Source: a virus. Taken from it: a stretch of DNA of 62,763 nt. The notes under the pieces are model-generated. The model was not told where the DNA came from and ran no database searches. It saw only the letters and a list, made by a program, of their open reading frames with translations. Of the stretch, positions 53,341 to 62,763 are shown one piece after another; positions within the stretch are counted from its first letter, which is position 1; each line of letters opens with the position of its first letter. Location: the IMG/VR virus record IMGVR_UViG_3300044641_003586, positions 1 through 62,763 of that record; one strand, 5' to 3'. A program made the translations under genes and the position numbers.

Positions 53341-54069
53341 ATGACACAAGATATGACCATCGAACAGTTTTGCCGCAAGCACAAAGCTTGCGGAGAAGGC
53401 CAAGAATGGGCTTTAGCCTCCTGCTCCACCATGCAGGAAGTTTGGAACAACGTCAGACCAGAATGGCTCATTTGGGTTGCAACCCGTTTGGGCGTGTTGA
53501 CCGATAAAGAGCTTCGGTTATTTGCGGTATTTGCCGCAAGGCAAGTGCAACACTTGATGACCGATTCGCGCTCAATAGCAGCTATTGATGTTGCAGAACG
53601 GTTTGCGAATGGCGAAGCGAGTGTCGAGGAACTTGAAACAGCATACGCAGCAGCAAGGGCAGTAGCAAGGGCAGCAGCATCGGCAGCAGCATACGCAACA
53701 ACAAGCGCAGCAAGGGCAGCAGCAAGGGTAGCAACATCGGCAGCAAGGGCAGCAACATGGGCATCAGACGCAGCAACATCGGCAGCAAGGACAGCAACAA
53801 ACGCAGCAAACGCAGCAAGGGCAGCAGCATACGCATCAGACGCAGCAGCAGAAGCAGAAGCATACGCAGCAACAGGAGCAGAAGCATACGCAGCAGCATG
53901 GGCAGTAGCAAAGGCAGTAGCAACAGACGTAGCATCATGCGCAGCAAGGACAGCAGCAGACAACGCAAGGGTGGCAGCATACGCAGCAGCATGGGCAACA
54001 AACAACGCAGCCATGAAAGAATCTCAAGCCACATGGCTCCGGGAAAACACCACGCCTAATTTTCTATGA
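53341..54069 (+). CDS. Phage protein with long alanine-rich helix
   Basis: 242 residues. Residues 1-100 form a conserved head (CGEGQEWALASCSTMQEVW, then ARQVQHLMTDSRSIAAIDVA). About 101-225 are Ala-rich repeats (ARAAASAAAYATTSAARAAA) with an 11-residue tendency, giving a long amphipathic helix. The DNA is a GCA-rich simple repeat and opens spurious frames on both strands. I have seen similar head-plus-Ala-rich proteins in other phages; the function is unknown. It is coupled to the next gene by ATGA. Confidence 0.72.
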   Translation: MTQDMTIEQFCRKHKACGEGQEWALASCSTMQEVWNNVRPEWLIWVATRLGVLTDKELRLFAVFAARQVQHLMTDSRSIAAIDVAERFANGEASVEELETAYAAARAVARAAASAAAYATTSAARAAARVATSAARAATWASDAATSAARTATNAANAARAAAYASDAAAEAEAYAATGAEAYAAAWAVAKAVATDVASCAARTAADNARVAAYAAAWATNNAAMKESQATWLRENTTPNFL

Positions 54070-56655: not shown

Positions 56656-56914
56656 ACACCACGGAGAAGGGCCGTGTAACACTGTGAGCGGCGATGGCAG
56701 TGGCGATGGCGATGGCGATGGCAGTGGCAGTGGCGGTGGCTATGGCTATGGCAGTGGCTATGGCAGTGGCTATGGCAGTGGCTATGGCGATGGCAGTGGC
56801 GGTGGCTATGGCTATGGCAGTGGCTATGGCGGTGGCTTTGGCTACGGCGATGGCAGTGGCAGTGGCTATGGCGGTGGCTTTGGCTACGGCGATGGCAGTG
56901 GCAATGGCAATTAA
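56633..56914 (+). CDS. Gly/Tyr/Ser/Asp-rich low-complexity protein
   Basis: 93 residues from MSNSLRVKHHGEGPCNTVSG (56633). Residues 21-93 are built from GYG, GSG and GDG units (GSGYGSGYGSGYGDGSGGGY). The DNA is a run of 6- and 12-base repeats, so copy number may vary. Proteins of this composition often phase-separate or form flexible linkers. It lies just before recT, in the recombination run. It could also be a non-functional expansion. Confidence 0.55.
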   Translation: MSNSLRVKHHGEGPCNTVSGDGSGDGDGDGSGSGGGYGYGSGYGSGYGSGYGDGSGGGYGYGSGYGGGFGYGDGSGSGYGGGFGYGDGSGNGN

Positions 56915-60145: not shown

Positions 60146-60601
60146 ATGAAGTTACACATTGGCATCGACCCTGGGCAGTCAGGAGGAATTGCCATCATCC
60201 CCGACAATAATCCCGCAAAAGCGTGGGCCGTAAAAATGCCTGATACACTGGCTGATTTGTGGGATGAACTGAGCAAGCATGAGCCTAGATGGGCTGGTGT
60301 TGAGGGCTTCGTTGTCCACGCATATCTTGAGCGTGTCCACTCCATGCCGGGACAAGGAGTTGCTTCATCATTCAAGTTCGGCCAAGGCTTCGGCCACCTT
60401 GAGATGGCACTCACCGCTGCACGCATTCCTTACACTTACGTCACTCCTCAGAAGTGGCAGAAGGAGCTTCAATGTCTCACCAAGGGTGACAAGAACATCA
60501 GCAAAGCGCGAGCACAGCAGTTGTTCCCGCATATCAAGGTGACTCACGCGATTGCAGATGCCCTGCTCATCGCTGAATACTGCCGGAGGACCATGAAGTG
60601 A
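60146..60601 (+). CDS. RuvC-like Holliday-junction resolvase/nuclease
   Basis: 151 residues, an RNase H-fold nuclease. GIDPGQSGG gives the first catalytic Asp (residue 8), AGVEGF the Glu (53), and HAIADALLIAEY the last Asp (138). VTPQKWQKELQCLTKGDKN is typical of phage RuvC-like proteins. It resolves branched DNA during recombination and packaging. It lies in the same rightward run, about 0.8 kb before the IS110/Nop-like gene and the repeat array, so it is also the only obvious nuclease that could work with them. Confidence 0.85.
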   Translation: MKLHIGIDPGQSGGIAIIPDNNPAKAWAVKMPDTLADLWDELSKHEPRWAGVEGFVVHAYLERVHSMPGQGVASSFKFGQGFGHLEMALTAARIPYTYVTPQKWQKELQCLTKGDKNISKARAQQLFPHIKVTHAIADALLIAEYCRRTMK

Positions 60602-61310: not shown

Positions 61311-61388
61311 TTCAAAAAACATTCAGAATCCCTATTGACTCTCGTTCGCCTTTGTGCGAGCAAACCTAGTCGCAAGACAACCCACAAT

Positions 61389-62288
61389 ATGAAAACAAAT
61401 AATAACATCATCACCAACACTGAAACCATCCGCCCACTTGTTCGCGGATTCTACGATTTGCAAAAGCTACGCATCCACACGGGCAACCGTTTGTGTGCTC
61501 AGTTCAGGTCCAAGCTAGGGCTGCAATCTTCCGAGAAGGAAGAAGAAGATGAAAAGGCCGAAGAAGTCCTCGACATCATTCGTGCTTCATACAAGAAGCT
61601 CACCGATGGGGTGAAGAAGGAATTGCCAAACATGAAGTCCTTCGTGGGCGACGAGGTGATTTCCGACTACACCGAGCTTTGCCTTGTCTCGCAATACATT
61701 GACCTTGAATCCCGCGAGAGCACACACCTTCGCCGCATCGAGAACATCGTGCAGGAACACCCATTGTGGGATGCGTTCTTCGCAGGCGTCCGTGGTTGCG
61801 GTCCAACAATGGCAGGCGTAATCTTGTGCGATATTGACATTACTCGCGCTACCTATCCAAGCTCTCTCTGGCAATACTCAGGTTTTGGCGTTGAAGCAGA
61901 TGGTCGCGGCACCAGTCGCCGCAAAGAGCACATGCACCGCATCAGCTACTTGGACAAGGAGGGCAAGCCTGCCGAGCGAGATGGCATTCGCTACAATCCT
62001 TGGCTCAAGACCAAGCTGTATGTCCTTGGCACTTGCTTCGTCAAGGCTGGCGGCTTGTATCGCAGTTACTACGACAACTACAAGAACCGCTTGGAGAACA
62101 GCCCGAAATGGGTGGAATCAAGCAAAGGACACCGACACAACGCCGCGATGCGTTACATGATTAAGCGGTTCCTCGTTGATCTTTACAAGGCTTGGAGGCC
62201 GCTTGAGGGTCTGCCAGTTGCGCCAGAATACGGCGAAGGCAAACTTGGCATCATCCACGGCCAAGTGAAGCTGCCAATGGCGGCATAG
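61389..62288 (+). CDS. Nop/IS110-C-terminal-like protein, TasA-like
   Basis: 299 residues from MKTNNNIITNTETIR (61389). Residues about 15-125 are helical with a charged loop. Residues 126-275 match the pattern shared by the C-terminal domain of IS110 transposases and by Nop5-type RNA-binding proteins: WDAFFAGVRGCGPTMAGVIL, then LWQYSGFGVEADGRGTSRRK, then WLKTKLYVLGTCFVKAGGLY and YYDNYKNRLE, then MIKRFLVDLYKAWRPL. No RuvC or HNH domain is present, unlike TasR or TasH. A 36-nt-period array follows 19 bases after the stop. I infer the RNA-binding protein of a TIGR-like system. Alternative: a domesticated IS110-like DNA-binding protein. Confidence 0.75.
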   Translation: MKTNNNIITNTETIRPLVRGFYDLQKLRIHTGNRLCAQFRSKLGLQSSEKEEEDEKAEEVLDIIRASYKKLTDGVKKELPNMKSFVGDEVISDYTELCLVSQYIDLESRESTHLRRIENIVQEHPLWDAFFAGVRGCGPTMAGVILCDIDITRATYPSSLWQYSGFGVEADGRGTSRRKEHMHRISYLDKEGKPAERDGIRYNPWLKTKLYVLGTCFVKAGGLYRSYYDNYKNRLENSPKWVESSKGHRHNAAMRYMIKRFLVDLYKAWRPLEGLPVAPEYGEGKLGIIHGQVKLPMAA

Positions 62289-62306
62289 ATTTTGTCATGC
62301 TTGCTT

Positions 62307-62623
62307 AGTCACCCATCACCGTCGAGCGAGTCAATAACGCTGAGTCACCCATATGTTACGAGCGAGTCAATCAACGTAAATCATCCCTCACAGAGAAGCG
62401 AGTCAGGAGCACGCATACACCCATTAAATCGGAGCGAACCATAAACCATCTAGCCACCCAAGCTGGTTAAGTGAGCCTAGCGCCTAAAGTCACCCAAGAT
62501 ATATGAGCGAGTCATGTCCAGAAAGTCACCCCAGAGGGCACTAGCGAGTCAGTATGCTAAAGCCAACCAAAGCCCATTTGCGAGTCAAGTGACTAGAGAC
62601 ACCCAACATCTTGTAGCGAGTCA
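62307..62623. repeat. TIGR-like array: about nine 36-nt units of two 9-nt repeats and two 9-nt variable segments
   Basis: Units begin at 62307, 62343, 62379, 62415, 62452, 62488, 62524, 62561 and 62597 (steps of 36 or 37). Each unit is repeat 1 (consensus AGTCACCCA), a 9-nt variable segment, repeat 2 (consensus AGCGAGTCA), and a second 9-nt variable segment. Units 3 to 5 have decayed repeats (AATCATCCC, AGCGAACCA, AGTGAGCCT). A degenerate repeat 2 (GTCA, 62294-62297) with a 9-nt spacer precedes unit 1. On the complementary strand both repeats contain TGACT, compatible with box C/D-like kink-turns, so the guides may be read leftward. The strand of transcription is not known. Confidence 0.8.
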
Positions 62624-62763
62624 ACTATGAGCGATACTTGACACCCTGACCGTCCGGGGTAATGGGCGGGTGTGCCGGGTAGCTGCGTGAGAAACAGTCC
62701 GGTCAAAATCGAGCCTAACTTTAAATGCTGCCCACCTTCCGGCGACCTCCTTGCTCAGGATTT
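62624..62763. other. Array trailer and window end
   Basis: After the last clear repeat 2 a degenerate GACACCCT (62640-62647) may be a final repeat 1. GACCG near 62648 can pair with CGGTC near 62699, enclosing G/C-rich sequence. No gene is visible; if the array is read leftward its promoter should lie here or beyond the window. Confidence 0.4.

What the first reader, a model, noticed from the sequence alone, without database searches (positions are those of the whole stretch)
62307..62623. Spacers differ in every unit while repeats decay in the middle of the array
Units 1, 2, 6, 7 and 9 keep a perfect second repeat. Units 3 to 5 carry one or more degenerate repeats, and units 4 and 7 have one 10-nt spacer. 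No two of the spacers I read are alike. This looks like an array that is changed by point divergence and segment exchange, not by simple tandem duplication. Both repeats share AGTCA at opposite ends, so the unit is pseudo-symmetric, and on the complementary strand each contains TGACT.
Basis: seen in the sequence. Interest (0 to 1): 0.7.

Follow-up and report, generated by a model that had tools for sequence, protein, structure and literature searches.

The report
Phage RNA-guided TIGR-TasA guide array
The repeats are a phage-encoded array of short paired guides for a recently described RNA-guided DNA-binding protein (TIGR-Tas), and comparison with close relatives shows that the guides are swapped as whole cassettes, with breakpoints mostly at one of the two repeats.

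Summary
The repeats are real and non-coding. They form a dual-repeat TIGR array (Faure et al. 2025, PMC12045711): edge AGCGAGTCA, 9-nt spacer A, loop AGTCACCCA, 9-nt spacer B, 36-nt unit, nine units at 62294-62623. The gene just upstream (61389-62288) encodes a nuclease-less Tas protein (TasA). It matches TasR and TasH in sequence (E 1e-11, 3e-8) and predicted fold (Z about 18). About 85 relatives were found; 69 of 92 loci examined carry such arrays, 1177 loops in all. Edge base-pair changes favour G·U over A·C, so the RNA strand is +, the strand of tas.

Relatives with 95-98% identical TasA keep only the last two units; the other seven differ. Spacers A and B flanking a loop are inherited together, and breaks lie at edges: 61 spacer groups against 3. 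Point divergence, unit gain or loss, and a 52-bp deletion at the shared AGTCA also occur. But the middle-of-array decay is not general, the unit frame was wrong, the first half-unit was missed, and no kink-turn applies. No target was found in 745 kb of related DNA. New member of a known kind; the turnover pattern bears on a stated open question.

The parts
61389..62288 (+). tasA, 299 aa, solo Nop-type TIGR-associated protein, no nuclease domain (longest ORF starts at 61335, TTG)
   Evidence: phmmer 9mty TasR 1.2e-11 and 21kl TasH 2.9e-8; tblastn to SpTasH locus 4e-8; model Z 18.5 to TasH, 18.1 to TasR; phrog_4285 2.3e-39, labelled transposase
62294..62623 (+). TIGR dual-repeat array, nine edge-A-loop-B units
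   Evidence: sequence; parsing; relatives
62294..62297 (+). 5'-truncated edge repeat GTCA
   Evidence: same GTCA before the first spacer in L004, L005, L006
62298..62324 (+). unit 1: spacer A TGCTTGCTT, loop 62307-62315, spacer B TCACCGTCG
62325..62360 (+). unit 2: edge, spacer A ATAACGCTG, loop, spacer B TATGTTACG
62361..62396 (+). unit 3: edge, ATCAACGTA, altered loop AATCATCCC, TCACAGAGA
62397..62432 (+). unit 4: edge, GGAGCACGC, altered loop ATACACCCA, TTAAATCGG
62433..62469 (+). unit 5: altered edge AGCGAACCA, 10-nt spacer TAAACCATCT, loop AGCCACCCA, AGCTGGTTA
62470..62505 (+). unit 6: altered edge AGTGAGCCT, AGCGCCTAA, loop, AGATATATG
62506..62542 (+). unit 7: edge, TGTCCAGAA, loop AGTCACCCC, 10-nt spacer AGAGGGCACT
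62543..62578 (+). unit 8: edge, GTATGCTAA, AGCCAACCA, AAGCCCATT; shared by all near relatives
62579..62614 (+). unit 9: edge TGCGAGTCA, AGTGACTAG, AGACACCCA, ACATCTTGT; shared by near relatives (spacer A diverged in L006)
62615..62623 (+). final edge repeat AGCGAGTCA

Best explanation
A TIGR guide array and its TasA protein, encoded by a tailed phage. The + strand, probably co-transcribed with tasA (the array starts 6 bases after its stop codon), would be cut inside each edge repeat into 36-nt tigRNAs. A TasA dimer would hold one tigRNA; spacer A pairs with one strand of a target DNA and spacer B with the other, so TasA binds and bends an 18-bp site without cutting it. The likely use is silencing or hindering a competing mobile element or a host locus. 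The array evolves by exchange, gain and loss of edge-bounded A-loop-B cassettes plus point divergence. Shown here: array, homology, fold, absence of a nuclease, RNA strand by base-pair evidence, cassette inheritance. Inferred from the published family: processing, dimer, DNA pairing. Guessed: the biological use.
For: TasA matches solved TasR and TasH in sequence and fold, Z 18.1 and 18.5, above IS110 recombinases 12.5 and Nop proteins 7.8. The aligned parts of TasH (63 on) and TasR (111 on) lie after their nuclease domains, so the nuclease is absent. The array matches the published layout and that of the published Salicola TasH locus, AGACAACCA / AGCGAGCCA. 90 arrays in 69 of 92 loci, 93-95% of spacers 9 nt. 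Edge columns 2 and 7: A-T 334, G-C 330, G-T 293, A-C 31 against 234, 226, 394, 134 expected; single departures from a Watson-Crick consensus go to G-U 117 times and to A-C 29 times. Cassette inheritance: loop-side partner kept while edge-side partner changed for 61 spacer groups, the reverse for 3.
Against: No RNA data. No target found: the expected geometry, A followed by the reverse complement of B, is not enriched over control geometries in 745 kb of related DNA, and the 18-mers predicted from units 8 and 9 are absent from the viral collection. No terminator directly follows the array; the window ends 140 bases later. Repeats of units 3-6 are degenerate, so some units may be inactive.
Confidence: 0.92

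Rival explanations
1. Protein-binding iterons, for example a replication origin or partition site; spacers are mere filler.
For: Directly repeated short motifs lie near helicase and primase genes in the circular order.
Against: Spacers are inherited in specific A-loop-B pairs (61 against 3); edge columns covary like RNA pairs with G-U preferred to A-C; arrays sit beside tasA in 69 of 92 loci. Filler would not show this.
Confidence: 0.03
2. A decayed or inactive TIGR array: tasA and the last units are remnants.
For: Altered repeats in units 3-6 of the window.
Against: tasA is intact and 95-98% identical at protein level to relatives; similar repeat changes occur in most arrays; the paired edge columns stay paired (G-U or G-C) in every edge of the window.
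Confidence: 0.04
3. IS110-type element with a bridge RNA: the protein is a transposase, as PHROGs labels it.
For: phrog_4285 is annotated as transposase; the RNA-binding half resembles IS621 (Z 12.3).
Against: No DEDD catalytic domain: the 299-aa protein aligns only with the part of IS621 after residue 124; multi-unit guide array instead of one bridge RNA; TasR and TasH are much closer.
Confidence: 0.01

Closest known systems
TIGR-TasA dual-repeat systems (Faure et al. 2025, PMC12045711; e.g. FpTIGR)
   Same: Solo Nop-domain protein, array directly downstream, two alternating 9-nt repeats, 9-nt spacers, 36-nt unit, truncated first edge.
   Different: Both repeats begin with AG rather than the UG (box D) of TasR arrays; the last edge is complete; no terminator directly after the array.
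Salicola phage CGphi29 TIGR-TasH (SpTIGR)
   Same: Repeats are of the same kind (loop AGACAACCA, edge AGCGAGCCA against AGTCACCCA and AGCGAGTCA); homologous protein.
   Different: TasH has an N-terminal HNH nuclease; the window protein has none.
IS110/IS621 bridge-RNA recombinases and box C/D Nop5 proteins
   Same: Shared RNA-binding Nop-like fold.
   Different: IS110 has a DEDD domain and a single bridge RNA; Nop5 works with L7Ae and kink-turn RNAs on RNA targets.

Membership tests
TIGR-Tas (TasA type) | Nop-domain Tas protein homologous to TasR/TasH | tested here: met
   E 1.2e-11 and 2.9e-8; Z 18.1 and 18.5
TIGR-Tas (TasA type) | Adjacent array of two alternating 8-12 nt repeats with about 9-nt spacers | tested here: met
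TIGR-Tas (TasA type) | Matching box D and box C motifs in edge and loop, extra edge pair supported by covariation | tested here: met
   AG...CA in both repeats; edge columns 2 and 7
TIGR-Tas (TasA type) | No nuclease domain (TasA) | tested here: met
   Model aligns only to post-nuclease parts of TasR and TasH; no Pfam nuclease; other family members begin at the same place
TIGR-Tas (TasA type) | 5'-truncated edge at start; 3'-truncated edge plus terminator at end | tested here: inconclusive
   Start met (62294-62297); last edge is full and the window ends 140 b later; a hairpin with a U run lies about 100-170 b downstream in L004
TIGR-Tas (TasA type) | Processing to 36-nt tigRNA and tandem-spacer DNA targeting | not testable with these tools
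   needs RNA-seq and binding assays
IS110 transposase | N-terminal DEDD catalytic domain | tested here: not met
   299-aa protein aligns to IS621 residues 124-314 only
Box C/D snoRNA with kink-turn | Kink-turn flanking the guides | tested here: not met
   Edge and loop are 9 nt with no stem beside them; + strand of the array folds less than shuffles, z +3.3

The most novel reading that the evidence does not exclude
TIGR arrays renew their guides without any adaptation machinery, by recombination at edge repeats between arrays of related phages, so that intact A-loop-B guide cassettes are shuffled. In the window's own clade the renewal is polar: the 3' end is retained and the tas-proximal part is replaced.
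Probability: 0.55. Interest if true: 0.7.

Novelty: new member of a known kind. Interest (0 to 1): 0.5.

Why it matters
[quoted passage not shown] The sets of near-identical phages found here with differing arrays show what is inherited: the A-loop-B cassette, with breaks at edges. That is evolutionary evidence that the two spacers of one tigRNA act as a pair in nature, also for nuclease-less TasA, and it gives concrete phage groups in which acquisition and targets can be studied.

Tried and rejected
Targets: four spacer geometries, gaps 0-4, first in 270 kb and then, with both pairings (within a unit, across an edge), in 745 kb of related DNA: no exact match and no excess for the published geometry. 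That geometry (A followed by the reverse complement of B) was derived by me from the paper's statement of 8-nt 3' overhangs and its C - 5 rule, which is why the other geometries were run too. Exact 18-mers from units 8 and 9 and one control geometry in the whole viral collection: none. Single 8-mer matches in the own contig: 589 against 541, p 0.13, not significant. Repeat decay by position: no middle excess; loops slightly worse towards 3', p 0.03. General 5'/3' polarity: seen in the window's clade (all pairs share the 3' end), not in other groups. A consistent strand difference in folding over 64 arrays: p 0.12, not significant, although the window's + strand alone is unusually open. Rfam gave nothing for L004, L006 and L007. 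Three pattern hits (L013, L020, L023) carry no array and are probably chance matches. No near match to the window in the phage record collection.

Full report
What is in the sequence. The window is one complete IMG/VR record of a tailed phage (terminase, RecT, helicase and primase). Its two ends lie about 615 bases apart in relative L004, so it is a nearly complete, circularly permuted genome. At 62294-62623 there are nine 36-nt units: edge AGCGAGTCA, spacer A, loop AGTCACCCA, spacer B. The exact edge core occurs 7 times here and the total in the window far exceeds shuffles. The loop alone, with one mismatch allowed, is not more frequent than chance in the window (37 against 35); it is the alternation at 18-base steps that is beyond chance (chain of 8 against at most 2).

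What it is. The gene directly upstream on the same strand (61389-62288) matches, by sequence, solved TasR (9mty, 1.2e-11) and TasH (21kl, 2.9e-8), and the published TasH phage Salicola CGphi29. An AlphaFold2 model from 56 family members (pLDDT 85) matches TasH at Z 18.5 and TasR at Z 18.1, then IS110-type recombinases at 12.5 and Nop proteins at 7.8. The aligned parts begin after the nuclease domains, so this is TasA. The arrangement is the dual-repeat TIGR array of Faure et al. 2025 (PMC12045711). Which repeat is the edge was read from the published Salicola array and the Microcystis phage Mvi-JY20 array, both of which end in a truncated GCGA-type repeat just before a terminator-like hairpin.

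Relatives. A DNA pattern scan and profile scans found about 85 loci, in viral contigs and nine genome-assembly contigs. Ninety arrays with 1177 loops were parsed in 69 of 92 loci; spacers are 9 nt in 93-95%. These counts include a few near-identical contigs; the tests below leave most of them out. The loop is AG, three or four mostly A/C bases, then CCA; the edge is AGCGAGYCA or AACGAGTCA. Edge columns 2 and 7 pair as A-T, G-C or G-T, and A-C is rare; single departures from a Watson-Crick consensus give G-U 117 times against A-C 29 times. On the complementary strand this preference would be reversed, so the RNA is the + strand, the strand of tas. Counts are not independent between related arrays, and the within-array association test is only modest (p 0.02 in A-T arrays), so the weight rests on the G-U against A-C asymmetry seen in both A-T and G-C arrays.

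How the array changes. Near relatives with TasA 95-98% identical and tas DNA about 93% identical have arrays of about 9 to 14 units. The window shares only its last two units with them. L004 and L005 share all later units but differ by one inserted or deleted unit and by small patches near the start. In L006 an edge and a downstream loop are fused exactly through the shared AGTCA, a 52-bp deletion relative to L004. Four further groups show mosaics that are mostly colinear. For spacers present in two or more arrays of a group, the partner across the loop was kept while the partner across the edge changed in 61 cases, and the reverse in 3 (sign test 5e-15; each unit is counted from both of its spacers, so the effective number is about half). 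In the window's own group the contrast is absent (1 against 2), because there the shared block is continuous; the signal comes from the other groups. A and B spacers hardly ever swap roles (8 against 405). Chance matches between groups are 40 times rarer than matches within groups. So the A-loop-B cassette is the unit of inheritance and edges are the usual breakpoints. Linkage alone does not show whether this is due to recombination preference or to selection for working pairs; the second would be expected if both spacers must match one target.

How it works. From the published family: transcript, cutting within edges, 36-nt tigRNA, TasA dimer, spacer A on one DNA strand and spacer B on the other. 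Without a nuclease the effect should be binding and bending. None of this was tested here for this phage. A search for targets found nothing, which argues against frequent self-targeting or targeting of the close relatives held here; host and competitor genomes are unknown.

Verdict. Identity is secure; this is a new member of a known kind. The comparative result on cassette inheritance is the part worth following. I could not check the paper's supplementary list, so I cannot say that this contig is unlisted.

Noticed in passing
L004 11463-11530, L006 3281-3341 (window is cut inside it at 62763): Downstream of the array, two close relatives fold into the same nested three-stem hairpin with quite different stem sequences (z -2.7 and -3.1), followed by a U run; no Rfam family matches. 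Possibly a terminator or an unnamed structured RNA.
   Followed up: partly
61347-61388: Just upstream of tasA a stretch conserved in relatives (TGTGCGAGCAAACCTAGTCGCAAGACAACCCA) resembles one edge plus one loop; perhaps a vestigial unit or leader.
   Followed up: partly
60146-60601: A phage Holliday junction resolvase of RuvC type (phrog_1770, 1e-27) lies in the same direction shortly before tasA.
   Followed up: no
L009 9642-10010, L010 9420-9915 and 11021-11498: Some relatives carry arrays upstream of tasA or on both sides of it.
   Followed up: no
56690-56908 and 53647-53997: Long imperfect tandem repeats (GGCNATGGCAG type and AGCAGCAAG type) in early-region genes of the window.
   Followed up: no
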